A stretch of DNA of 64,000 nucleotides from Sthenelais limicola (lineage: Eukaryota > Annelida > Polychaeta > Phyllodocida > Sigalionidae). How positions within the stretch are numbered: position 1 is the stretch's first letter; each line of letters begins with the position of its first letter. The notes below the pieces were generated by a model that was given only the letters and a program-made list of their open reading frames with translations, searched no databases and was not told the origin of the DNA. Shown here piece by piece: positions 457-57,252 of the stretch. Made by a program: the position numbers and the translations under genes. The DNA is taken from assembly GCA_942159475.1 (NCBI GenBank), contig OW804095.1, forward strand, positions 70,522,773-70,586,772, in the 5' to 3' direction.

Positions 457-1235
457 TCATGCCTCCAATTCCGCTATGAATTGTGACCATAAATTTGATT
501 TTTGTCCCCCTCTACCATGAATGTCATTGTTGTATTCTGAGACTTTTATCTCTATTTTTGCTTCGTTCAGAAAAGCTTTAAGCACCATTTTGTTCTCGTG
601 GTTAATTCTCTGGCGATAAATGTAACATTTGATGGCAGTTGTCAACCAATTAATAAAGTTTTTGTGTGGGCTCTTGCCACTATAACCAAGCATAATATTA
701 TTTTCATTTAAATCGTCTGCCTTAAAACCTTTCAACAATTTGTTTCTCTGTACCCAGCTTTTAACCTGTTTCCATAGGAAATTCTAGTCTTCACACTTCA
801 CATACAAAAAAGTGACAAAATAGTATCTTCTTCTCCACAGTAATCACAACTTGGTGATTTTTTCAATTGAATCTGTTGGAGATAACTATTACAACCTATG
901 GTTCTGTGCATAATCCTATATTGGAGCGACTGCCATTTTGTTATCTTATTACATTGAAACGGAATCATACATTTTTCTTTCTACACCTTCTCCGAACCTA
1001 CAAAATGTTCATCTTTTAATAATATATTCCAGCCGCCCAGTTTTCCATAGTCAATGTTAGCCTGTTTTACGAGCTCACCATCCACATTTTTCGTTCTCAA
1101 ATCTTCAATCTTTAACAGCTTATTATTCGCTTTGAACATTAAATGATTCTTTTAGGTATGTCGAAATTCTCACCTGCTACCATGTGTAACCATTCTCTAG
1201 GTATTGCGGCCACTAGTTTCAGTCAAAATGCTGCA
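457..1235 (-). pseudogene. Decayed 3' fragment of an L1/Tx1-type LINE ORF2
   Basis: Read on the minus strand, this is the C-terminal part of a LINE endonuclease-reverse transcriptase, broken by stops and frame changes. Collinear matches to the better-preserved LINE at 25773-29596 are visible. An IPREWLH segment near 1195-1215 matches IPKEWLL. LQYRIMHRT near 920 matches LQYRILHRT. A CDYCGEED zinc-knuckle-like segment near 840 matches CSFCDRRD. The terminal open stretch (457-738) has NWLTTAIKCYIYRQ matching NWIILNTKAFIHRQ. All catalytic domains are missing, so it is a dead 5'-truncated copy. It appears to be the same broad family as the intergenic LINE but much older, judging by the many differences. 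Confidence 0.8.
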
Positions 1236-4207: not shown

Positions 4208-4310
4208 GGGACAATATTGCACTGTCCGCGGTGTTTTTTTCGTAACCTACTCGCCTATCGGCTCGTGGGCCACGAAAAAACAAACATCTCGGACAGTGCA
4301 ATAGTGTCCC
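4208..4310. repeat. Foldback (inverted-repeat) element
   Basis: The left arm GGGACAATATTGCACTGTCCG (4208-4228) pairs with the right arm CGGACAGTGCAATAGTGTCCC (4290-4310), with a single central mismatch. An inner pair (a T7 run followed by CGT, against ACG followed by an A6 run) extends the stem towards a loop near 4245-4270. The structure resembles a miniature foldback transposon. It lies in the Xlox 3' flank, possibly inside its 3' UTR. Confidence 0.75.
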
Positions 4311-4680: not shown

Positions 4681-5195
4681 CTAGGCCTTTGACAAGACCC
4701 TTTGCTCCGTTTTTATCTTAGGTGCTGAAGCACGTTCACATTCACTATCACCTTTAGAGTTTGTTCCCAGGGTTGCCTTGTCATTTTTCTCCTTTTCCTT
4801 GTCTCCAAATTGAATATTACTTTCCGTCGCTGGTGGCGACCCCCTTCCCGAATCTTCGTCACTGTCTCCAGCTTTCTCGGAGCTTACTTCTTCTTTTGTC
4901 CGCGAGAGGTCAGAATCGGCGTCTTCATCGCCACTACCATCTTTGCTATTTCCATCGTTACTAGACAGGGGGCGCGGTCGGCGTTTGGCCTCATCCTTCT
5001 TCCATTTCATGCGTCGATTTTGAAACCAGATTTTGATGTGGCGCTCGGTGAGATTAAGCATGGCTGCAAGCTCGATTCTCCTCGGTCTAGATATATATTT
5101 GTTGAAATGGAATTCCTTCTCCAGTTCCAAAAGTTGAGCACGAGTGTATGCTGTTCTTGTCCTCTTATTTTCATCGGTAAAGTCAAGGTTAGCAC
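4681..5195 (-). CDS. Xlox: Xlox/Pdx homeobox gene, exon 2 (homeodomain and C-terminus)
   Basis: This is the second coding exon of the ParaHox transcription factor Xlox (Pdx1 in vertebrates, Lox in echinoderms), a DNA-binding regulator of mid-gut/endoderm fate. The acceptor is a T-rich tract ending CAG at 5198-5196. The exon opens in phase 1 and completes the glycine codon begun in exon 1. The homeodomain is about residues 228-287 of the joined 389-residue protein. It starts [20 protein letters not shown], has helix 3 [17 protein letters not shown] with Q50 and N51, and carries the Xlox-diagnostic histidine at homeodomain position 44. The tail is acidic and Ser/Glu/Lys-rich, ending at TAG (4683-4681). 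The homeodomain identity is very secure. The tail has no recognised domain. Confidence 0.97.
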
Positions 5196-6639
5196 CTGAA
5201 AAAATAGATGGAATTGATATATCATTAAAGTGGGAATAAATTGACTTCAAAATAGAATATAATTATCATGAAAGGTGGTTTGCTTCATGAAATCATGTTA
5301 CGTGGCCCTGGGTGAACTTTTGTTCGCTTAGCTTCATACAGAATTATGTTACAGACACAGAACTAGTCGTTTGGTTAGAGCAACGCGTATACAACAGGCT
5401 CGTTGGTTAAAGACAATGCTACGCATGTAATTCCACTGGTGCGCTATATGGATCCACCCTAACGTCACGCTTGCTTCTTTTTGTTATTGTTCGGCTTGGG
5501 AATTTGGCATATACTGACTGCTTTTCTTTTAAATTGTTTTCTGAAAACGTTTAGCAACAAACATGTTCGTAAGTGACTTAACAGCACGTCTTCCGCTTCG
5601 CCTATAGGCCTACAACATCGTGTTCCAATATAAATTCCATTTATATTTCATAATTATATTCGCAAAGTTATTCAATAATTAAACATGATTTTATCAATGT
5701 GCTTAACATAGGCTAACTGTAGGACACTAATGATTCGATTGCGTTAAAAATGTCCTAAGCTGATTAGTGGCAGGGAGAAGTTATCGCACCCTAACCAGGG
5801 TTATACCACTGACTGCAGTATATAATAGGCAACACGTATGGTTCTATAAAATATGTTTGATACTTCGGGCAGAGAGGTAGTATTTTTCTAAAATGACATG
5901 TGCATAGACCATAGATATAAATACATAGGATATAACTGTTTCGCAATCTCTTCGTCGCAATGACCTTTATAATTATGTACATGCATATAATACGGGATCG
6001 GATTCGGTTCTACATGGGAATTGGTGTCCAAAGTCATAATATATAACGTATTGTTTTTATTTCAATCCGGAAAGTTTAGATAACAAATAAGTAGAGGAAG
6101 AAGAAAAAGGTCTGTCATTCAGCTCCTCCAATGATAAATTTTGTTTGGCCGAATGATATTATGCCTTCGAGAAACATCTTTGAAATTAATTAATGTCCTT
6201 GATGAACACAACGAGTATAAAATAAATCCATTTTAATCTCGTTGATGAACACCATATAGGCTATGTATAGCCTATAGTTTGGCCATGATTTCGAAAGTGT
6301 GGCGCAAATCTGTATAATATATAAGACAACCCAAGAATATACATAGATCTATGCAATCCTGATATAGTACAGACGCTATATAGCGCATTATGATACAAAA
6401 TATACGAATTAAGCACTAAGGATCTTTAACTGGCATAAGCCTAAACCGCATCTGAAAGAGGAACCGACCATCCGACACTACCCAGAAGCCCTTAGATCTA
6501 TACATTTGGTGAAGGAAGGGTCTTAGTGTATCTATGCATGTAAAGCAATGCAATACCATGGCTCTAAAATAAGACTATGGTATCAGTTTCAAACGTCGTC
6601 CAGGTACACGCAGGCTGATAAATCTGGCTTATCGTCGGT
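5196..6639 (-). other. Xlox intron, 3' portion
   Basis: This AT-rich intron sequence begins at the AG acceptor (5197-5196). It includes a TAGGCCTA octamer at 5605. A tRNA-like A-box string near 5374 has no matching B-box. No gene or clear repeat was seen. Confidence 0.6.
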
Positions 6640-7060: not shown

Positions 7061-10000
7061 GTTAAAACAAAATGGCGGACGGCGATGCACTGTAATTGTT
7101 GGTAAGCTGAACCCCAGAGTAAGGGTAAGGGTAAGTGCATTGACAAGTAAGCATATAGGTAGTCCGGAGTGTCCTATAGAATTTGCATAAGTAGTATACA
7201 ACGATTGGTATTAATCACAGGGAAGAGGCATCGAAAAGAGAGAAAAATGTATAGAGATTTATTTTGGATGAGTTTGTCAATGAATAATAATACATGTAGG
7301 CTCTTGACAAGGGAAGAAACAAAAAATATCCAACTGGGAGATTAACTGAAAGAAAACTATAACCTACGAGTAGAAAGATTGGAAAAGTGCTCAGATGGTG
7401 TTGTATATAATTGCCCTAAACCCGCTAGTTTATCAATTACAGGCTGGTATTGGCTCAGTGAGAACCTTTTAAAGGCTTTCCCATCCTATTGAAGGGAGTA
7501 AATAATGGGATGGGTGGTTTGGAGGTACATCCGACCCAAGCGATCAGCAGGTACCTCCTTCCTTCACTATCTCACCAAGACTGTCCCTGAGGCTAGACAC
7601 CAATAGCTATTGATTTGTGGTGACAATTAGCCACGTTGGAGTGAGATATTTCTGCCTTGTTGAGTATTGTTAATCACCCTCCTGACATTGGCCCCGGGCG
7701 GGCGCGGAGGCTCGTTGGGGCGGGGCGGAGTGAGAGCGGCGGGGAGTGGGGCTTCCGGGGAGGAGGACCCGCCAGTAGGGCCGGACCGAGCGTCATGGTT
7801 TTCGCGTCAACCGTGTCCCTCAGAAGTATCCCGAATAAAGAATCAACATAATGAAAACAATGTAGTGACTGTCTTGATGAATTTCTAAAGTTGTTTTTTT
7901 AAAAATCCAAATTGCACTATAGGCCTAAGTGATGTCTTCTTGGGAAATGTCCACTTCGCAGCGGATAAAACCGAACCAATATTTCGGAAGGTATTGATAT
8001 TGTGCACATACGTCGCTGTGAAGATAAATGTTTCGAAATATAACCTGATCTTTTATAAAATATCCGCCCCTTGATATAACTCAAATTTGTATGCGGAATA
8101 TTCATAACGCATAACCACAGGGAAAATGTACCAAAAATATATTATCAAAAGTATAAAAGTTTTCAAGTGCAAAGGCGCACATCTCCCCGGGAAGTTTTGC
8201 TTTAGAGGAGATCTATGGGAACGTAAATAGCTGCCATTCACTTTCACCTTTCGCAATCCCAGTACGACACCAGGAGAGTGTCTGTGTACATTGTGTAAGA
8301 TGTACCAGGTGCGCTTATAAAGTACCTAGCATTAAAAACCCACAAAGCCTCCAGGAGGTGGTCTAAATAAGCACCCCTACTGTTCACTTTTTATATAGCC
8401 ACTTAACTAACCTTACATCACCCCGATTGTGCTTGAAGGAGAGTAGCTGCTCGCACAGCAAGGGGTGGTATCTGGGAGGTTGTCATTATTGGGAGAAAGG
8501 CTCTACAGAAGGCAGAAGGGTAAATAATCAACAGGTCTGAGGGAGAAAGAGAATATGTTTTGAGGAGCTTAATCTGATTATATGGCGGTTGATATGGGAT
8601 TAGACACCTCCGTTTCCGCAGTGCTTTTTATCCCGCGGTTTATATTGTCTGTAAAGCGCGACCGGCACGGGTCATATTATATACATACCACCACACCTTG
8701 CCGACCGTGGGAACATTTCCATTTTTCTGTTTATTTAAAACATGACAGGTCTATTCCTTCCAAGAAGTAACTGATTTCATTATAATACGATATGATGTAA
8801 GTAAGGTAAATGAAATAGCTTGCCATCAATGACTTGTCGTGTTTGATAAACTTTGTTACAATGATGACGTTAAGGCAATCTCTCCTAGATATGCCATCTT
8901 GTTTAAATTAAGAAAAAACCCGCATGATTTCGTAGACGATCTGTTGGTATGGAAATGTGGTTGTTCGACCACAGTCACTTTTCCTATAGTGTAGCGAAAT
9001 GAATTTCGAAAAAGATAAAAGTTTTGAATATCTCCTTGTTGTGTTGACGGCTTTGCATTTCTTTGAAAGTCCAAAGGCTAACGGAAAATTCGAAGTGGAA
9101 GATGAATGGGATATTTGGACTGGGAGAGGAATGCAAGTAACGTGCGGCGACTGCAAAGTTCGGTAGTACTTTTTGAAAAACCCAATAAAAGAAGCGATAG
9201 CAAACATATAGTCAAGATCGAATTACAGCCCTCAAATCACTGGCCATCATCTTCACCGGCGTTGCGAGTTGGTATACACTGACTCTTCCTTGAAGTATGC
9301 TTGTGGGAGATACCCGACACCAATTGACTCTACAATGTTTTATTTGGTAGCATATGTCATCTAAAACACCAACCTCGCGCGTGTGTTAGCATTAAACTGT
9401 TGGGCAAGGGAGTCAAGTGACCGGATAAGGAAATGATAAACACAAATGAACACTAGTGGGTACTGATGGTCACCAAGAGTGTGAAATACAAGCCATCACT
9501 ACCAAGCCCTAATGCTCAAGGAGCTGGAGATGTTAAATTGCTGCTTGAGATAAAATTCGAGACTGGATTTTCACCGACAGTGAGTTATTATTGACATGAT
9601 CTATACCACCTGGCCATACGAGAAACGTCAGAGGGTGAATTCATTAACAACATGTTTATTAATCAGATGCGATAAGAATTTGTGGTGCGATTACGATAAT
9701 CCATTGTCGTGAATGTGGGTGTGATTGATACGAACGTTTCAAGATTAGAATGTTGCGTTTCTCAGATTATTTTAACAGATTTTATTTTGGGGGGCATTCG
9801 AGGCAACGTTTATGTCTTAAATAAATATATATATAAGTAATTTCATTTCCATTTGTCATTTGTGAACAATACAGTTACAATACGGACATAGGGCCATCCC
9901 ATCTGTAAATGACATGTCTTCCTGGGCGCCCTTAAAGAAATATTTATAGGCCTATACAAAAAGATCAGTTTTTATGTTAAAGCAATATAATTCTAGTTCA

Positions 10001-24177: not shown

Positions 24178-24275
24178 GACACCCCATCCTCCTTCCTCCT
24201 CCTCCTCCTTCCTCCTCCTTCCTCCTCCTTCCTCCTCCTTCCTCCTCCTTCCTCCTCTCCCTGCCTCCTCCTCTC
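24178..24275. repeat. CCTCCTCCTT minisatellite
   Basis: The decamer CCTCCTCCTT is repeated about five to six times, with degenerate CCT units on both sides up to about 24335. The open frames over it (Ser/Leu/Pro on plus, Arg/Glu/Gly on minus) are compositional. Confidence 0.9.
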
Positions 24276-24337
24276 TCTTCCTCCTACCCATATAGCTCAT
24301 ATAATCTTCTCTTCTTCCTCCTCCTCCCTCCCTCCTC

Positions 24338-24554
24338 ACAGAATTGGAGTTCAAAACGTGAAAGTTTAAACAGGGCTGCGGGAATGTATTTTAAATTCAG
24401 AAAAAATCTAAAGCTGATACCACCGAAATTATCAATCTTCAAAAATAGGTTTATTTACAAAGCAGTTCAATCCTGGAATGCTCTCCCAGCAGAACTCCAA
24501 AATCTTGAAACAATTAAATTGTTTAGGAGGAATGCTGAAAAACACATACTATAA
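24338..24554 (+). pseudogene. 3' end of a CR1/L2-like LINE ORF
   Basis: The plus frame ending at TAA 24552-24554 encodes the characteristic C-terminal tail of CR1/L2/Jockey-type reverse transcriptases. It reads YKAVQSWNALPAELQNL, then IKLFRRNAEKHIL, the usual W-N-x-LP...F+xxLKxHL pattern. Only about 70 codons remain, abutting the CCT minisatellite on the 5' side, so it is a 5'-truncated dead copy. The following sequence (24590-24960), ending GTGAATAAATACTCACTCG, may be its 3' UTR. It belongs to a different LINE clade from the element at 25179. Confidence 0.7.
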
Positions 24555-25163: not shown

Positions 25164-25178
25164 ACATTCAGCATGTAA

Positions 25179-25763
25179 AGAGGAAATATAAAAGTAAATG
25201 GAGACTTTTACAGACACGACCAGTTTGCCACATTACCAACCGAGCTAGTGCTTTCCAAAATCTCTAAGAGGGAAGACGACAATACGTTCATATTTTTCTC
25301 AGAGGACAACCCATTGTCAAACCACCACTCAGCCCCATTTTACTTGGATGGACACGAATTTGACAACGTGGAACAGTTTATTTTGTATAAGAAGGCCTAT
25401 TATGGAAAGGACGTAGAGAAAATGGAATATGCTCTAGCCACAACCGATCCTAAAAGCTGCAAGCGAAATTTCAGAGCCATCACCCAAAACCAAGATGAAT
25501 GGGAAACCCACAGGTCGGAGCTTGTGCTTAGGGCCTTGAAGGCTAAAGTGTCAAAGAATGAAAGAGTAAGGAATTACCTCCTTATGACCAGGGATAAGAA
25601 AATAGGAGAGGCATCCTACAACCGACTATGGGGGATAAGGCAACCTGCTCGGGGAGCTTTGGATGAAAACAAGGCAATTCCTGATCGACCAAGATCAGAA
25701 AAAGCAGGAGGATCAAAAGAAATAGACTATCTCAAGCTCCAGATAACGCCAGAAGCGGATTAA
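25179..25763 (+). CDS. LINE ORF1 remnant encoding a NADAR (YbiA-like) domain
   Basis: This is an open frame of 194 codons running from the element's 5' boundary (stop TAA at 25176 lies in the flanking duplication) to TAA at 25763. There is no early ATG; a GTG lies at 25248 and the first in-frame ATG is near residue 82, so the true start is probably lost by truncation. Residues about 37-154 match NADAR: FIFFSEDNPLSN, a DGHEFDNVEQF segment with the conserved D-G and E, a DPKSCKRN loop, W108 and R112, LRALKAKV, RNYLLMT, GEASYNRLWG. The usual acidic residue before the last WG appears replaced (NRLWG). Family members act on ADP-ribose-like substrates, and some remove ADP-ribose from guanine. The stop lies 9 nt before the ORF2 ATG. 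Domain identity is strong; its role in the element is unknown. Confidence 0.85.
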   Translation, partial: RGNIKVNGDFYRHDQFATLPTELVLSKISKREDDNTFIFFSEDNPLSNHHSAPFYLDGHEFDNVEQFILYKKAYYGKDVEKMEYALATTDPKSCKRNFRAITQNQDEWETHRSELVLRALKAKVSKNERVRNYLLMTRDKKIGEASYNRLWGIRQPARGALDENKAIPDRPRSEKAGGSKEIDYLKLQITPEAD

Positions 25764-25772
25764 CACGCCGAA

Positions 25773-28700
25773 ATGGAGGACGACAGTCAACAAGAACTGA
25801 CTAAGTTCATTTCTCTAAATGTGAACGGTCTGGCTGGGGTAGTCAAAAGATCTGCCATTTTTAATAATCTTAAAGAAAATAGAAGCTGTATCATATCGTT
25901 GCAAGAGACCCACTCGGAGCCGGACAAAGAGGCCATATGGTCGTCTCAATGGCCAGGGAAAATATATTTTTCTCATGGTTCATCAGCATCTAAAGGTGTT
26001 ATGTTAATGGTGTCTAAAGATGTTAACGAAAGAGTAATAAAAACAGGTAAAGACCAAGAAGGCAGATGGATATATGTTATTGTTAAAAATCGTGAGTCGA
26101 CAATGTGTATTTTTAATGTATATGCCCCTACGGCAAATTTCTCAAAAGAGCAAGAAAAGGTCTTAAAAGCTATAAGAGCAGAATTGGAGGAATTATCCTT
26201 CGACGAACTGGTAATAATGGGAGATTTCAATGCTGACATAACAAACAAAGCCTCTTCTCAATCGAGTAAAACATTGTTAGATTTCATACAAGAGTATGAT
26301 CTGTGCGACATTATAGCAGCAAAGAGTGAAGGTTCCCCCTCAAACACATGGGAGAGGGTAGGAACGGGCCTAGAGTCGAGGTTAGATTACATTTTCGTGT
26401 CGAATAATATTTCAAATTGGATGACAAAAACAGAAGTTTCCTCCTCTGCCCATTCAGATCACAAAGAAATAATAATGTTCATGATTCAGAAAGAAGTTAA
26501 AAGAGGCAAAGGCTTCTGGAAATTTAATACATCTTTGATAGAAAATGAATCCTTTAGAGCCGGGGTGGAGGAAATATCCAAATCGATACAAGAAGAAAAC
26601 CTCACTGACAAAACCAGATGGGAATTTTTCAAATTGAAAGTTAGAGAGCTGGCGATGTCTCTAGGTAAAAATCTAGCTATAGAAAGAAGGAGAAAGAACG
26701 AGGAATGCTCTATAAGGATCAGAGAACTGGATAAAATTAATGGATTAAATGTTGAACAAAAAAGAGAGAAAGAAAATCTTCTATTAGAAATAAGAAAACA
26801 GGAGCTAAAAAAAGCGGAGGGAGCCCTAATTCGCTCTAGGGCAAAGTGGGCAGAGGAGGGAGAGAAACCCACGAAATACTTCTGCAATCTGGAGAAGTAC
26901 AAAGCAAGTAAAAAAAGCATAACACAGCTTAATGTAGATGGAGTGATAGTAACTAATCAGAAGAGTATACTTCTGGAGGGTGAAAAATTCTATACTAAAC
27001 TATATGCCAAAGAGAATTTAGATCAGGAGGTCGCGGAGGAATTCGTAGACCCCAATAAGTCTCCAAATATGGTTGATAGAAGAGAAAATGACATGTTAAT
27101 ACGTCCAGTTTCTAAACAGGAGGTAGAAAAAACTATGAAAACCTTTAAAAGGAACAAAGCGCCGGGTAGTGACGGTTTTACGATAGAATTCTATCAGGCC
27201 TTTTGGCCAGTAATAAGCGAAATGTTCATGAAAATGCTATATAGCTGTTTAGATGACGAGGAAATGACATGTGAACAAAGAAGAGGGTTAATTAACGTAA
27301 TACCAAAAAAAGAAGCTGACAGTATATTTTTGGCTAACTGGAGACCCATAACTCTACTTAATGTAGACTACAAGATTATCTCAAAAGTGTTGGCAGAAAG
27401 ATTAAACAATATACTTCCCAAACTGATAGGCGAGGACCAATACGGTTTCGTCAGGGGTAAATACATTGGCTCTGCTATTAGAAGAGTGGATGATGTTGTC
27501 TCTCTCCTTGAAAAAAGAAAAGAGCAAGGTCTAGTAGTGGCTTTGGATTTTTCCAAAGCATATGATTCTATATGTTGGGAATTTTTAGAGAATACATTAC
27601 TAGCCTATGGTATCGACTATGTATATGTAGCGTGGGTAAAAACCCTATTAAATAAATCTGTGGCAGCATTTTGCAACAATGGTTTTTCCTCGGCATGGTT
27701 TAAACTTGGAAGAGGGATGAAGCAAGGTGACCCCATCTCTTCGTCCCTCTTCATCTTATGTGTAGAAAGGCTAGCCGAATAAGTGAGGCAGGATGGAAAT
27801 ATAGAAGGTATACCCTTGGAGGGGGGAGAGTCAAAGCTGGTCCAATTCGCAGATGATTTAACAGTTATGGTCAGGAACGAGTTTTCACTTCACAAAACCA
27901 TTCAAATGCTGGATAGATTTGCTGAAGCCTCCGGGCTTAGGCTGAATGCGAAAAAATCGAAAGGATTTAACATAGGCGGAATAAAATTATCCAACAGAGA
28001 AATATTGAAAATAGAATGGACAGACACCATGCGAGTGCTGGGGGTGACTCTCCTCTCTCCAAGAAACGAATCAAAAATGGCCTCAATAAACAGCGAAAAA
28101 CTCTTGGAAAGGGTCAGGGAGATAATCAATCAGTGGAGAAAAAGAAGCCTAACTATAAAGGGCAGAGTGCTAGTGTGTAATGTTTTTCTTCTCCCTATTT
28201 TTCAGCATGTGCTGGCGACAATATCTCTAACTGTAAAGATTCAAAATGAAATCCATAAAGAGATGATGAAGTTTGTATGGTCTAATAAAGGGCATAAAAT
28301 TAGCACAGCATTCCTAGCGCAAAAAGCGGAAAATGGGGGCCTGGGCCTAAGAACAATTAGAGAGGTTATAATAACAAATAGACTCAAATGGGTACAAAGA
28401 ATAATATTATCAAACAACGACAGAGACTTTAAGGCCATGGCAGCATTTTCTGCCCCAGGTAGACAAGCCCAAGAAATTATGCTAAGTAGGAGCAAGCCCA
28501 AGAAAGCCTTAAATGGTTTTTACCAAGAAATATTCAATATATGGGATAAATATTATTTCAGTAAGGCTCCAGTAACAAGAAATGAAATTCTCAAGGAAAG
28601 GCTGTGGGTGAATCGCCTTATTAAGAGTAAGAAAAAGCAAATGTTCCACTATCAGAGCTGGGAAAAAGAAGGATTGCTGTGTATAGGAGATATTGTTAGC

Positions 28701-29596
28701 CAGCAAGGAAAGGTTATGTCTAGTCTCGAGTTGAAGAGGCTTCACGGTATAGCCCCCGATTTTTATCTCAAGAAGGAGTTACAACAAGCTATCCCTAAGG
28801 AATGGCTTCTCACAATTAGAAATTCCCCCCCCTGCGAGGATAAAGGGAATATAGAAATAAAGATAAATAGTAAAATTTTTGATATTCGAGTATGCTCGAG
28901 CAAGGCTATATATGGCGCCTTAGTAGAGAGTATGAAGGTAAAAAGAGAAAAGCGTGACAAGTGGAGAAACCTGCTTGATTTAAGCGAGGAGGACTATCTA
29001 ATGTTACAGTGGAAAGATGTGTTTAATAATCCGTACAAAACAACAAGCGAAACAAGACTGCAAGTTTTGCAGTACAGAATTCTACATAGAACTGTAACAT
29101 GCAACCTTTACCTGAAAAATGCCTCCTTTCTGGATCACCCTGGATGCTCTTTTTGTGACAGGAGAGACGATTTGATTCACTTTTTCTTGACGTGTCATGA
29201 CACAGAGAAACTCTGGTCAAAGGTGTATAATTTTATTGAATCGGTAGGATATCTCAACGAGGATATAGGGGGAAGAAAGATAATAAGAAGAAACCCTTCT
29301 GGGACCTTGTATGTCGAAAAAATTAACATCATGTTCGGTTTTAATAAAAAGGGGACAAATGTAAAGGTTATAAACTGGATTATACTTAATACAAAAGCCT
29401 TCATACACAGGCAGAAATTGTTTCACCAAGGAAACTTGGAATGGCTGTATTATATATATATGAGATGAGGTCAAAAATAACGATCATATTATATCAAAAT
29501 AAGTTCAGAGCCATAAGCAAGGAGGAAAATATGCTGTGGAAAAGTCTAGTGGCAGATATATCAGATCTGCTGAGCAATAACAACGCCCAAGACTAA
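25773..29596 (+). pseudogene. LINE ORF2: APE-type endonuclease and reverse transcriptase, two lesions
   Basis: Starts ATG at 25773 (CGAAATGG), 9 nt after the NADAR frame. Residues 12-235 form an APE-like endonuclease with all hallmark motifs: SLNVNG (N16), QETH (E45), NVYAP, GDFN (D151, N153), SRLDYIF (D205) and SDH (D229, H230). The reverse transcriptase follows: NKAPGSDGF, NWRPITLLNVDYKI, YGFVRGK, LDFSKAYDS, MKQGDPISS, then FADD at about residues 692-695. A CX2CX8HX4C zinc knuckle (CSFCDRRDDLIHFFLTC) lies near the C-terminus. The NWRP...DYKI style places it in the L1/Tx1 group. Lesions: an in-frame TAA at 27780-27782 between the QGDP and FADD motifs, and a 2-nt gain in the AT run near 29450-29463 that ends the frame early at 29468. 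The shifted frame stays open to TAA 29594-29596. Probably inactive. Confidence 0.93.
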
Positions 29597-31820: not shown

Positions 31821-32139
31821 AAACCCCGCGATCTGTAATCCACCTGTGATTCTGGTACTTTAATTATAGAAATACATAATAAAACCCACACCATTGGATA
31901 GAGCATTAAATTCTCTATTGAAAGATATAAGATTTATTAATGTAGGCCAAGAAATGGCTGCGATATGAACGTTTTAAGTCAACAATATAAGTAGGCCTAA
32001 AAACTGCATGATCGCACAGTAGGCACCGAACATTGTAGGCCTATTAACGGGGCTGTCAGCGGGGCTCTCTGAGACTTCTTTAGTATTTTTTCAGTGATAT
32101 CTGATGAAATATGATCAAATTTTATGCACATATAATAAA

Positions 32140-32285
32140 TATAGAATGGAACTCGCCAGCAATAATCGAAAATTTATAGGACTTGATTCGTCCACATAAG
32201 CACGATGCCGTAGGCAGAGTGCTTATGTGGACGAATCTCGTCCTATAAATTTTCGATTATTGCCGGCTCGTCCCATTCTCTCTAT
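32140..32285. repeat. Foldback element with arms of about 60 bp
   Basis: The left arm (32140-32203) and right arm (32219-32285) are inverted copies with few mismatches around a 15-nt loop. The inner stem is GATTCGTCCACATAAGCAC against GTGCTTATGTGGACGAATC, and the outer stem includes AATAATCGAAAATTTATAGG. The outer ends (TATAGA and TCTATA) may carry short target duplications. It is likely a miniature foldback transposon. Confidence 0.9.
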
Positions 32286-33062
32286 ATATGCTTGATCTTG
32301 ATGTTCAGCTCTGTAGGTCTTCATACTTTAATTCAATATAAACATTACTTTGGGCACTCAATCTCTGTTTCTCTCCGTGTCAGGGCCTCTAACTTCTATT
32401 CAGGAAAAGTAAGAAAAAAACATAACAGTCAGTAACATAATCCTCCTCCTCCCTCCCTCTTCCCAGAATTTGTGTTGAAAACTGGCTGTCCCATCTTTAT
32501 TCCTGTTCTTTCCTTCATAGTTCCTCTAGTAGTACCCTCTTTCCCTGTGTCTGTCTCCATATATATCCATTTCACTTGAATTTCCTGTCTCTATCTCTGA
32601 CATTCTATTCTGTTTCGCTCTCTTCCTGTCTCTCCCTGCATCCATTTTTCTCCTCTCCTCCTTTTCCCCCTTCTCTTTTTCAATCACATACATTTTCATT
32701 CCCTTTCATTCCCTACCTCCTATATCAACCCCTCTGCCTCATTATTGTCCTTCTCCGCCTGCCATGTCTCTGTCTAGATACACATTGGTGAAAACATTTT
32801 AAGCTTATACAAAGAGAAGGGAGAACATAATATTATTTGGGCAATTCAAAGTCCGGCGGGGTTATCACTGGAGGGATTTTGTCCGTACAAGGGGATGAGG
32901 GGGTCAAGTTGATAAAGTTCAGCGAAAGCTAAAGAGGTTTATAACAAATTACCTTTAATGATAGTTCTATCCAGAGCGCTTCCAGATATACCAGTATGCA
33001 TTCTAATGATTCTAGTATAGGCCTAAATGACAAAATACTTCGACGATCGAAGTAAGACGCCT
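32286..33062. other. Intergenic, pyrimidine-rich then unique
   Basis: A CT-rich plus strand at about 32340-32780 (many TCTC/CCTC strings) explains the short Ser/Leu/Pro frame at 32576-32791. No gene was recognised. Confidence 0.4.
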
Positions 33063-54856: not shown

Positions 54857-55425
54857 TTATAGATTTCTATGCTCTTCTTCGTCCTCTGAGGACCCAACAT
54901 CAATGTCCGCGTTTGCGTCATCATCATCAACATCATCACGTAAGTCTACATCGTTACTACTGACATCGATTTCTTCTTTAACGTCTATATTATAGTGCTC
55001 AGAGCATTGGTTATCTTGTTGACATTCTCGTTTTATATCTGTTTTACCATCACAACTTTCATCGTCAGTGACACCGACGCAGCCTCCTTTCTCAATGTCA
55101 GAACTTCCTGCGTTTTTATTTCTCGTTGCACACGTCCGCAGACACCGGCATTTCTCGCGAGAGTCCACGTCCCCTTCTTTCTTGTATTTGACCCTCCTGT
55201 TTTGGAACCATATTTTGACCTGTTTCTCGGACAGATTTAAGTAGGTAGCTATCTCGATACGACGGAGGCGCGAAAGGTACATGTTGTTGTTGAACTCTCG
55301 CTCGAGTTCGAGAAGTTGTGTTGATGTAAAAGCAGTCCGGATGCGCTTACCGCCGGCAAGGTCATCGTCGGCACTTCCGGTTGAGGGCGGCGAGGTTCTG
55401 TTTGCATTTCCTCCTCCGCTAACTC
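54857..55425 (-). CDS. Gsx: Gsx homeobox gene, exon 2 (homeodomain and acidic C-terminus)
   Basis: Second coding exon of the ParaHox transcription factor Gsx (Gsh/ind family), a DNA-binding regulator usually used in anterior neural patterning. The acceptor is TATTTTGCAG ending at 55426. The exon opens in phase 1 and completes a glycine codon. The homeodomain spans about residues 231-290 of the joined 394-residue protein. It has [19 protein letters not shown], the Gsx-diagnostic [20 protein letters not shown], and helix 3 [18 protein letters not shown] with Q50 and N51. The tail has a Cys-containing segment ([13 protein letters not shown]) and then a strongly acidic Asp/Glu-rich end, which may act as an activation or interaction region. 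Stop TAA at 54859-54857. Family assignment is very secure. Confidence 0.97.
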
Positions 55426-57252
55426 CTGCAAAATAAAATATTCCTGTCATTAGTGAACCACGACGCTGAGTATATTACAAGAAACTCCTTATAAAGTCCC
55501 AATTGTATCTCAATATACCGATAGGGATTGAGCTCATATGGGATAATGACATGCAGTTAGTGTCTAAATTGCTTAATAAACAAATCTAACATAAAGTATA
55601 TATGTTCCTTTATGATAAAAAATAAAAACTGGTAACAGTAATATCGCTGATGGTCTAGCGATTCCCCCATTTATTTGATATATCTTTCCATCAAATATCA
55701 GGCAAAGGGACAGAGGTTTTTTATTATGCGTAATGGGGTAGGCTTCGTACATAACACTTGAGATTAAACCGTTGCATTATAATACAATCTATTACATTCA
55801 TTCATTCCCAATGGAAGATCAATCATCTGCGAATGGCCTCATGAGAAAGTTAAAGCTGCACATTTGACACAGACTGGTCAATGCCACTTGCCCTTTACTG
55901 TTAGTTTTATGTCAGATTCCACAAACACCCCGTCTAAGCTACAGCACAATTGTAACTGATGTCTCCCTGAAAAATCGCAAGGAAAACATAGACATGCGGG
56001 CCGTTCGCCAACCTTACTGACACCCATGTCAAAGTGTCACCGGTTTTGCAATGATATAATGCAATTATGACGATATAGCGTTGGCTCTAAGAAGTGCTTT
56101 CAATGGTCCGAGGGCCTGAGGTCCATACCGAAGGTCATCCGAGCTTTGTTGAGAAGGGCCGGGGTCAGTGGCCGGCTGGTTTGGCCGGCCCTCGGACGTG
56201 CTACCACGGTAGGCATAAAGGATTAGACCTCCCAGTTTCAGTAGTGATAAGTAAATATACCCAGATAACTTCCAATACAAGAGTGCCACCGCTTGGCGCT
56301 TAAGAAAAAATGGGTGAAAAGCTATATGTAATTCCATCTTCAAGTGATCTATGTATACCCCGGCTTTCAAGCCCATTCAACCCTGCGACTAGTTGTATAT
56401 GGAGGGTCAACAAAGCTGGCTTTTTAAGTGGCCCTTGGAATTTTTGTATACGAATCAAATTTCTGGATGTTCAAGGGCGGACCAATTGAGAGGAAAAGGT
56501 GGATTGTTATCCGCTAAACATTACTTCCACATTTGATCTATGACTTAAGCATACAAGGCAAAGATTTATATATTTATGTTAGACCCAGTGTTGATCAAAA
56601 GCAAGGCCATGTACTGGGAGAGTTATATATACTATATGACTATATGATATGATCTACCGGTATTTTTATGCCAATGTCAATAGGGGTCTGACATAAGAAG
56701 GCGTAAAGATCCTTGACAGACTGTTTAGACGACTGAATAGGTTCAAATGGGAGTTAATGGATCCTATTAAATCTAAAATATTATTCAATAGTCCAGTAAA
56801 TATACGAAAACCTTAGGATCATATTTATAGACTTTTAGCTGGGGAAAATGAGAAGCGTGAGGATTGAATATGCCTGCAATAACCAGTATGTATTTTCTGT
56901 TAGCCTGTGCATTTTTGTGAGGGGGCAAAATCAGTAGTTAGTTTTCTTTCTATATATAAAATTATATATGAATGCTTAAAATCTGTCCTTAATGTCGATG
57001 GAAGAGATGTTCTAGTATACGCGTAATGGCAAAGTTAATAATTGCTGGCTATATAGGATAGAATGGAGTTATATACTTCAGAAAAGTTCCTTGAGTGACA
57101 CAAACACAATAATGATATCAATCATACCAGGCTATCTCGAGATAGAAAGGAACATGTAATATCCAATAATTTACAGTAAATGGGACGCATTTTAGGTACT
57201 ACTTAGTTTTTGTACTTATCTAGAAAGCAATATCCATGTCCCCTTGACTCAC
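55426..57252 (-). other. Gsx intron
   Basis: An 1827-bp phase-1 intron with GTGAGT donor (57252-57247) and CAG acceptor. AT-rich. A GC-richer stretch at about 56095-56215 contains the inverted pair GGCCGGCTGGTTTGGCCGGCC (56169-56189). No gene inside. Confidence 0.85.

What the first reader, a model, noticed from the sequence alone, without database searches (positions are those of the whole stretch)
25179..25763. A LINE carrying a NADAR (YbiA-like) domain directly upstream of its endonuclease-reverse transcriptase
Seen: within one target-site-duplicated LINE insertion, the frame just 5' of ORF2 (9-nt gap) encodes a near-complete NADAR fold, with the SN, DG, E, W...R and WG landmarks. Known: NADAR proteins belong to NAD/ADP-ribose metabolism, and characterised members remove ADP-ribose from guanine, acting as antidotes to DNA-modifying ADP-ribosyltransferases. 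Inference: the element may use NADAR to reverse ADP-ribosylation of its RNA, cDNA or target DNA (a counter-defence or repair function), or as a nucleic-acid-binding ORF1 substitute. The open frame runs into the 5' truncation, so the family's full ORF1 is probably longer. I do not know of this as a canonical LINE accessory domain.
Basis: partly seen in the sequence, partly recalled or inferred. Interest (0 to 1): 0.9.

Follow-up and report, generated by a model that had tools for sequence, protein, structure and literature searches.

The report
Jumping gene carrying ADP-ribose-removing enzyme domain
A broken copy of an animal jumping gene carries part of a protein that looks like an enzyme for stripping ADP-ribose from DNA or RNA, and other jumping genes in the same genome carry it with its key residues kept, so it probably helps them copy themselves.

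Summary
The NADAR frame is real: 25179-25760 scores Pfam NADAR at E 1.4e-18 and sits just 5' of an L1-type endonuclease-reverse transcriptase. It is not a one-off capture: a sister element with open frames in the same genome (L044) has a 489-codon ORF1 ending in NADAR and a 1248-codon ORF2, each 40% identical to the window's over the aligned part. The window copy is decayed: truncated within ORF1, frameshifted after WG (the missing C-terminal NADAR motif lies in the +1 frame, 25639-25722), with a stop and a frameshift in ORF2. In this genome all 150 scored NADAR hits (of 5561 candidates) pass the cut-off. In 20 chosen regions 17 lie upstream of an EN-RT ORF2 of a second LINE type. NADAR is under strong purifying selection there (median omega 0.06); catalytic glutamates are kept in 41/41 and 40/41. 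Best reading: an active ADP-ribosylglycosidase fused to ORF1p that protects element nucleic acid; the substrate is inferred. Prior art: a 2025 paper notes NADAR-like ORF1s in oyster Tx1 LINEs.

The parts
25179..25640 (+). C-terminal piece of ORF1, in frame: short linker, then NADAR core (HMM match residues 33-154, nt 25275-25640), with catalytic residues E65, K72, E144
   Evidence: Pfam PF08719 E 1.4e-18; TIGR02464 above cut-off; HMM without the window 96.4 bits; fold match 8bau E 2.7e-6
25639..25725 (+). C-terminal NADAR motif (GNLLGELWMKTRQFL...) in the +1 frame, ending in TAG 25723-25725; points to a deletion with frameshift in this copy
   Evidence: C-terminal HMM E 1.5e-5, best of 3416 window fragments; resembles the end of L044 ORF1, by eye
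25641..25763 (+).
   Evidence: Low-confidence tail in the model, pLDDT under 50 at 148-162 and 165-177; NADAR motif lies in the other frame
25773..29468 (+). ORF2: endonuclease (about 25812-26462), reverse transcriptase (about 27300-28052), weak zf-RVT; one in-frame TAA at 27780-27782
   Evidence: Pfam Exo_endo_phos 3.7e-12, RVT_1 4.7e-25 and 1.2e-8, zf-RVT 0.0011 below cut-off; human L1 ORF2p 230.9 bits
29465..29596 (+). Last part of ORF2 in another frame (frameshift in this copy), stop TAA 29594-29596
   Evidence: Three-frame reading; compare the ORF2 tail of L044, judged by eye
25173..25178 (+). ATG followed at once by TAA, in frame with ORF1; at or just outside the 5' truncation point, not the family's start codon by comparison with L044
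   Evidence: Sequence; L044 ORF1 continues 288 residues upstream

Best explanation
What it is (shown): a dead, 5'-truncated copy of an L1-type LINE (probably Tx1) whose ORF1 protein ends in a NADAR domain of the YbiA (glutamate) type. The genome holds related elements with NADAR ORF1s, one of them with both frames open. How it works (inferred): ORF1p binds the element's RNA through its N-terminal and middle part and carries the NADAR enzyme into the ribonucleoprotein. There NADAR acts as an ADP-ribosylglycosidase, removing ADP-ribose from bases, most likely N2 of guanine, on the element's RNA or on the exposed single-stranded cDNA and nicked target during insertion. Host or ambient ADP-ribosyltransferases would otherwise block reverse transcription. 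Steps shown: fusion, conserved catalytic residues, presence in two LINE types, purifying selection (measured in the second type). Steps inferred: activity (about 0.75), nucleic acid as the substrate (about 0.5), defence by the host as the reason (about 0.35).
For: NADAR by sequence and fold. Side chains that contact ADP-ribose or lie beside it in PMC11543638 section 12, mapped through the 8bau alignment (numbering offset of 2 counted by hand): E43, K50, K75, R79, D86, W89, R93, E125 and W133 are identical in the window (9 of 11); Y84 is N and D130 falls at N beside a one-residue gap. Over 41 distinct genome NADARs including the window and three stand-alone ones: E43-position E 41/41, K75-position K 41/41, W89 41/41, W133 41/41, E125-position E 40/41 (one H), K50-position K 24 and R 17. 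Selection: 18 of 125 pairs usable, median NADAR omega 0.06; NADAR below the rest of ORF1 in 12 of 12 pairs with enough codons in both (medians 0.046 and 0.142). Sister L044 with open frames. L066, reached through its ORF2 tail and not its NADAR, also has a NADAR ORF1 directly upstream. Guanine de-ADP-ribosylation is reported for eukaryotic NADARs too (PMC11543638 passages). NADAR also occurs in bivalve and annelid picornaviruses (PMC9503650 passages), a parallel in other RNA-based parasites.
Against: No activity, partner or substrate is shown. The R79 position is not conserved in the genome's copies, and D78 and G152 vary. K-to-R at the K50 position, seen in 17 of 41, kept in-vitro hydrolysis in the E. 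coli enzyme but failed to rescue cells from DarT1. In L066 that position reads C by my count from the translation. The window copy cannot make a complete NADAR, and putting the +1-frame piece behind the core adds only 1.9 bits with the whole-domain profile (98.3 against 96.4). Selection was measured on the second LINE type and the stand-alone NADAR gene, on copies from the highest-scoring (so more intact) 150 of 5561 candidates, with overlapping pairs; no pair is from the window's own lineage, whose copies I could not retrieve (genome search busy). No ADP-ribosyltransferase was looked for in this genome.
Confidence: 0.5

Rival explanations
1. NADAR is active but its substrate is not nucleic acid: it degrades small ADP-ribose or NAD-derived signals, or removes ADP-ribose from host proteins, to blunt an innate response to retrotransposition.
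For: PMC9503650 argues that phage NADARs may act mainly on low-molecular-weight ADP-ribose derivatives and RNA-virus ones on macromolecular ADP-ribosylation (passages). TIGR02464, an N-glycosidase family for riboflavin intermediates, is reached just above its cut-off. Catalytic residues are kept.
Against: Fusion to ORF1p, which by general knowledge of LINEs travels with the element's RNA, suggests a local substrate in cis. Guanine de-ADP-ribosylation is reported for eukaryotic NADARs.
Confidence: 0.22
2. NADAR has become a structural or nucleic-acid-binding part of ORF1p and catalysis no longer matters.
For: The R79 position and D78 vary, 17 of 41 have R at the K50 position, and one related element has C there.
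Against: Both catalytic glutamate positions are almost invariant (41/41 and 40/41), and NADAR is more constrained than the rest of ORF1 in 12 of 12 pairs.
Confidence: 0.15
3. One-off capture: a host NADAR gene fragment happened to lie beside a LINE.
For: Only one copy in the window; the window copy is decayed.
Against: L044 and L066 have the same arrangement, and 17 of 20 chosen NADAR regions have an EN-RT ORF2 downstream on the same strand.
Confidence: 0.02
4. Two independent acquisitions of NADAR by two LINE types, rather than one old fusion passed on or exchanged between LINE types.
For: The quick tree put the two types apart, with long branches flagged. In 13 of 28 ORF1 frames of the other set the part before NADAR shows no match to L044 at E up to 0.005.
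Against: Holding 38 NADARs of the two types together gave a likelihood 31 units higher than the free tree, p-AU 0.917. The part of L044 ORF1 before NADAR matches 15 of 28 frames of the other set (E up to 0.005; several are near copies of each other) and 0 of 5 frames taken as controls from LINEs without NADAR.
Confidence: 0.3

Closest known systems
NADAR-like ORF1s of Tx1 LINEs in the oyster Crassostrea gigas (Repbase, reported in PMC12477816)
   Same: LINE of the L1/Tx1 kind with a YbiA-family NADAR in ORF1 (paper's words, passages)
   Different: A short passage in that paper. I could not compare sequences (Repbase not held). The window's genome is 1.13 Gb in an unnamed assembly. The second LINE type with NADAR and the selection data are not in the passages seen.
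NADAR-bearing Gypsy LTR elements of Ectocarpus (PMC12477816)
   Same: Retrotransposon with a NADAR domain
   Different: [quoted passage not shown] here it is at the end of a LINE ORF1
YbiA / NADAR enzymes, e.g. Phytophthora NADAR 8bau, E. coli YbiA, DarT1-associated NADAR
   Same: Fold and most active-site residues
   Different: Those are mostly free-standing; here fused to a retrotransposon ORF1p. The window is of the glutamate (YbiA) type, not the aspartate type paired with DarT1
LINEs with enzymatic ORF1 add-ons, e.g. the GDSL esterase plus zinc knuckle ORF1 in L011 (mussel-symbiont assembly)
   Same: A related ORF2 (29% identity) preceded by an ORF that carries an enzyme domain
   Different: Esterase, not NADAR
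NADAR in positive-strand RNA viruses of invertebrates, including bivalve and annelid picornaviruses (PMC9503650)
   Same: NADAR carried by an RNA-based genetic parasite (passages)
   Different: Virus polyprotein; relationship to the LINE NADARs not tested

Membership tests
NADAR / YbiA superfamily (PF08719) | Profile match above curated cut-off | tested here: met
   68.1 bits against 35.1
NADAR / YbiA superfamily (PF08719) | Conserved catalytic Glu and Lys (E43, K50 of the Phytophthora enzyme) | tested here: met
   E65 and K72
NADAR / YbiA superfamily (PF08719) | YbiA subfamily: Glu in the last strand (E125) | tested here: met
   E144; 40 of 41 genome NADARs
NADAR / YbiA superfamily (PF08719) | C-terminal G-x-N-L-L-G ... 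R helix | tested here: met
   Present, but in the +1 frame in this copy; in frame in L044
NADAR / YbiA superfamily (PF08719) | Hydrolysis of ADP-ribosyl-guanine | not testable with these tools
   Needs an enzyme assay
L1/Tx1-type LINE | ORF2 with APE-type endonuclease then reverse transcriptase | tested here: met
   human L1 ORF2p 230.9 bits
L1/Tx1-type LINE | Tx1 clade in particular | not tested
   No Tx1 reference sequences on hand; the label follows PMC12477816 and recall
L1/Tx1-type LINE | ORF1 with RNA-binding part before ORF2 | tested here: inconclusive
   L044 ORF1 has a highly charged part before NADAR, but Pfam finds only NADAR there above cut-off; the resemblance to L1 ORF1p is recalled, and no coiled-coil program was run
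L1/Tx1-type LINE | Target-site duplication | tested here: inconclusive
   Best candidate not clearly above background
Oyster Tx1 NADAR LINE families (Repbase) | Sequence similarity to those families | not testable with these tools
   Repbase not held
DarT1-NADAR toxin-antitoxin | Aspartate at the catalytic position and a DarT partner | tested here: not met
   Glu at E144; no ADP-ribosyltransferase in the Pfam scan of the element's three frames

The most novel reading that the evidence does not exclude
An ancient NADAR-ORF1p fusion is shared or exchanged between at least two deeply diverged LINE types and has been kept active by strong selection through their spread. This would mean that invertebrate hosts ADP-ribosylate retrotransposon nucleic acid (for instance guanine N2, the position modified by clam CARP-1) as an anti-transposon defence, and that these LINEs carry its antidote.
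Probability: 0.27. Interest if true: 0.87.

Novelty: new variant of a known kind. Interest (0 to 1): 0.64.

Why it matters
What NADARs do in animals is stated to be unclear (PMC11125620 passage). An animal genome in which NADAR is kept under strong selection inside repeated LINEs gives a direct test: does removing the catalytic glutamates cost retrotransposition, and is the element's RNA or cDNA ADP-ribosylated? It would also add a repair-like enzyme to the list of LINE ORF1 functions and point to nucleic-acid ADP-ribosylation as a force in the conflict between animals and their transposons.

Tried and rejected
One-off capture: rejected by L044 and L066. Target-site duplication: not clearly above background. 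Close relatives of ORF1 in 5.8 billion proteins: 48 candidates, none at E 0.001. Related loci in viral contigs by ORF1, by ORF2 and by ORF2 alignment: none confirmed. In genome contigs, 11 loci with a related ORF2 (7 of 11 from deep-sea mussel symbiont assemblies; I take them as host DNA): no convincing NADAR, best E 0.0094 in L015; 5 of 11 hold under 200 bases upstream of the match, so they could not show an ORF1. Rfam (gathering threshold) and ARAGORN scans of the window: nothing. Papers: searches for NADAR with retrotransposon (104 papers, only 20 listed, many matched only by other words beginning with nadar, as I judge), NADAR domain (15), YbiA with transposable element (2), Tx1 with ORF1, non-LTR and oyster (1), DUF1768 (6), NADAR with LINE, non-LTR and ORF1 (0). 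Of what was listed, only PMC12477816 was seen to describe NADAR in retroelements. Papers on LINE-1 and PARP and on CARP-1 were seen as listings; of these I looked at passages of PMC11209040 and PMC11543638.

Dropped or limited: of 125 pairs, 107 fell outside 0.05<dS<1.5 or were saturated and were not used for omega; the 18 used share sequences and are not independent; four of them, with the short frames L042 and L043, have omega 0.20-0.47. Copies came from the 150 best-scoring of 5561 candidates, which favours intact ones. The 46 NADARs in A2 were picked by hand from 120 listed of 4706. The 20 regions were picked for variety from the 150, not at random; 17 of 20 have an EN-RT ORF2 match downstream on the same strand (my count; in L025 and L031 only weak or broken pieces), the exceptions being L039 minus, L040 and L043. 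In one search matches under 90 bits (ORF2) or 45 bits (ORF1) were not printed.

Full report
1. The observation. The frame 25179-25760 is open and contains a NADAR domain: PF08719, E 1.4e-18, 68.1 bits against a cut-off of 35.1; TIGR02464 at 74.9 bits against 73.7; solved NADAR 8bau E 1e-9 and YbiA 0.0081 by sequence. A profile built from 46 other NADARs gives 96.4 bits; the next of 1652 window ORFs has 7.5, and the best of 2000 shuffles of the protein has 13.1. The AlphaFold2 model has its NADAR core, residues 41-140, at block means of pLDDT 86-97 and a poor tail. Foldseek finds two matches at E up to 0.001, both NADARs: 8bau 2.7e-6 and YbiA 1.3e-5.

2. Corrections. The end of L044 ORF1 shows the same motif in frame. 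I conclude that this copy lost the loop after WG and changed frame. Residues ~153-194, the TAA at 25761-25763 and the 9-nt gap are by-products; the +1 frame ends at 25725, 47 nt before the ORF2 ATG. ORF2 has a TAA at 27780 and a frameshift near 29465. Target-site duplication: the best pair is equalled or beaten in 82 of 382 background pairs (14 of 382 with tighter flanks), so it is unproven.

3. The element. ORF2 has EN and RT and is closest in the PDB to human L1 ORF2p, 230.9 bits, with the best R2 at 51.5. The label Tx1 follows the oyster report and recall; it was not tested. The best-scoring ORF2 relative in the protein database has 33% identity over 99%.

4. The same genome. The window lies in a 1.13-Gb assembly of 161 contigs; nine contigs, whose lengths are printed, sum to 1.127 Gb by my addition. 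A Pfam NADAR search gave 5561 first-look candidates; 150 were scored and all 150 passed the cut-off, in frames of 162 to 827 aa, mostly with nearly the whole domain. Of 20 regions chosen for variety, 17 have an EN-RT ORF2 match downstream on the same strand (my count). These 17 match the profile of window-type ORF2s only weakly (14-127 bits) and I take them as a second LINE type: ORF1 of about 574-827 codons where open, with NADAR inside; in seven of them a frame of 208-245 codons next (one tested gives a weak GDSL match, E 0.0085, below cut-off; another none); and an ORF2 of about 950-1080 codons where open (L026: R2 58.1 bits, L1 ORF2p 50.5). Two regions (L039 minus, L040) and L064 hold a stand-alone 162-codon NADAR.

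5. Sisters of the window's element. L044 holds a relative with both frames open: ORF1 of 489 codons with NADAR at residues 329-472, a 52-nt gap, ORF2 of 1248 codons; identity to the window 39.6% over ORF1 residues 2-153 and 40.4% over ORF2 residues 12-1222. L044 residues 1-288 have no convincing counterpart upstream of 25179, so the window copy is truncated inside ORF1. L066 was reached by extending an ORF2 tail seen in L025, a region fetched for a different NADAR; it has a broken ORF2 and, directly upstream, a NADAR ORF1 39% identical to the window's. A second ORF2 tail, in L043, was extended too (L065); nothing above the printed thresholds (90 bits ORF2, 45 bits ORF1) was found there.

6. 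Active site and selection. Mapping through to the residues named in PMC11543638 section 12 (read), 9 of 11 are identical in the window. Over 41 distinct genome NADARs including the window and three stand-alone ones (L066 not included): catalytic glutamate positions 41/41 and 40/41, K75 position 41/41, K50 position K 24 and R 17; the R79 position is not conserved. K-to-R there kept in-vitro hydrolysis but not rescue in cells in the E. coli enzyme. L066 reads C at that position by my count. In 18 usable of 125 pairs the median omega of NADAR is 0.06, and in 12 of 12 pairs with enough codons elsewhere NADAR is more constrained than the rest of ORF1 (medians 0.046 and 0.142). The pairs overlap, come from the best-scoring copies, and none is from the window's own lineage.

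7. Origin. A quick tree separated the two LINE types, but holding 38 NADARs of the two types together gave a higher likelihood by 31 units, p-AU 0.917. The part of L044 ORF1 before NADAR matches 15 of 28 frames of the other set at E up to 0.005 (13 do not; several of the 15 are near copies) and 0 of 5 frames from LINEs without NADAR. One old fusion, with ORF1 inherited or exchanged, is the simpler reading but is not proven.

8. Mechanism. Best reading: ORF1p brings an active NADAR into the element's ribonucleoprotein, where it removes ADP-ribose from nucleic acid. Known: guanine de-ADP-ribosylation by NADARs, eukaryotic ones included (PMC11543638 passages); guanine N2 ADP-ribosylation in six edible clams, one enzyme of which is CARP-1 (PMC11209040 passages); the Mol Cell authors call NADAR as eraser of CARP-1 marks an assumption not experimentally confirmed. 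The host here is not named, so the clam link is only a lead.

9. Prior art. [quoted passage not shown] So the kind is known in print. The second LINE type, the open sister and the selection evidence are not in the passages I saw; the searches were made, of which one search listed only 20 of 104 papers.

Noticed in passing
window 4684-5262 (-) and 54860-55474 (-): Two homeobox exons (Pfam Homeodomain); by recalled motif they look like Xlox/Pdx and Gsx, so the LINE lies in a ParaHox-like region.
   Followed up: partly
window 586-1151 (-): Decayed tail of another LINE ORF2, about 27-31% identical to the window's ORF2.
   Followed up: no
window 24180-24554 (+): Frame whose end resembles the tail of a LINE reverse transcriptase ORF (recalled; no Pfam match), just upstream of the element.
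   Followed up: partly
L039 (-) 5995-6480, L040 (-) 5995-6480, L064 (+) 1134-1619: Stand-alone 162-codon NADAR, three similar copies on contig C1; in L040 an open frame of at least 1972 codons without clear Pfam domain follows 77 nt downstream and reaches the end of the fetched stretch.
   Followed up: partly
L034 (+) 7444-9000: Diverged NADAR frame (65 bits) in which, by the tally and the printed alignment, the catalytic Glu position reads His.
   Followed up: no
L006-L011: LINE contigs inside a Bathymodiolus symbiont assembly, probably host DNA; L011 has a zinc knuckle plus GDSL esterase frame before ORF2.
   Followed up: partly
window 32135-32287 and 4208-4310: Long imperfect palindromes (84% and 77% identity to their own reverse complement in self-BLAST).
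   Followed up: no
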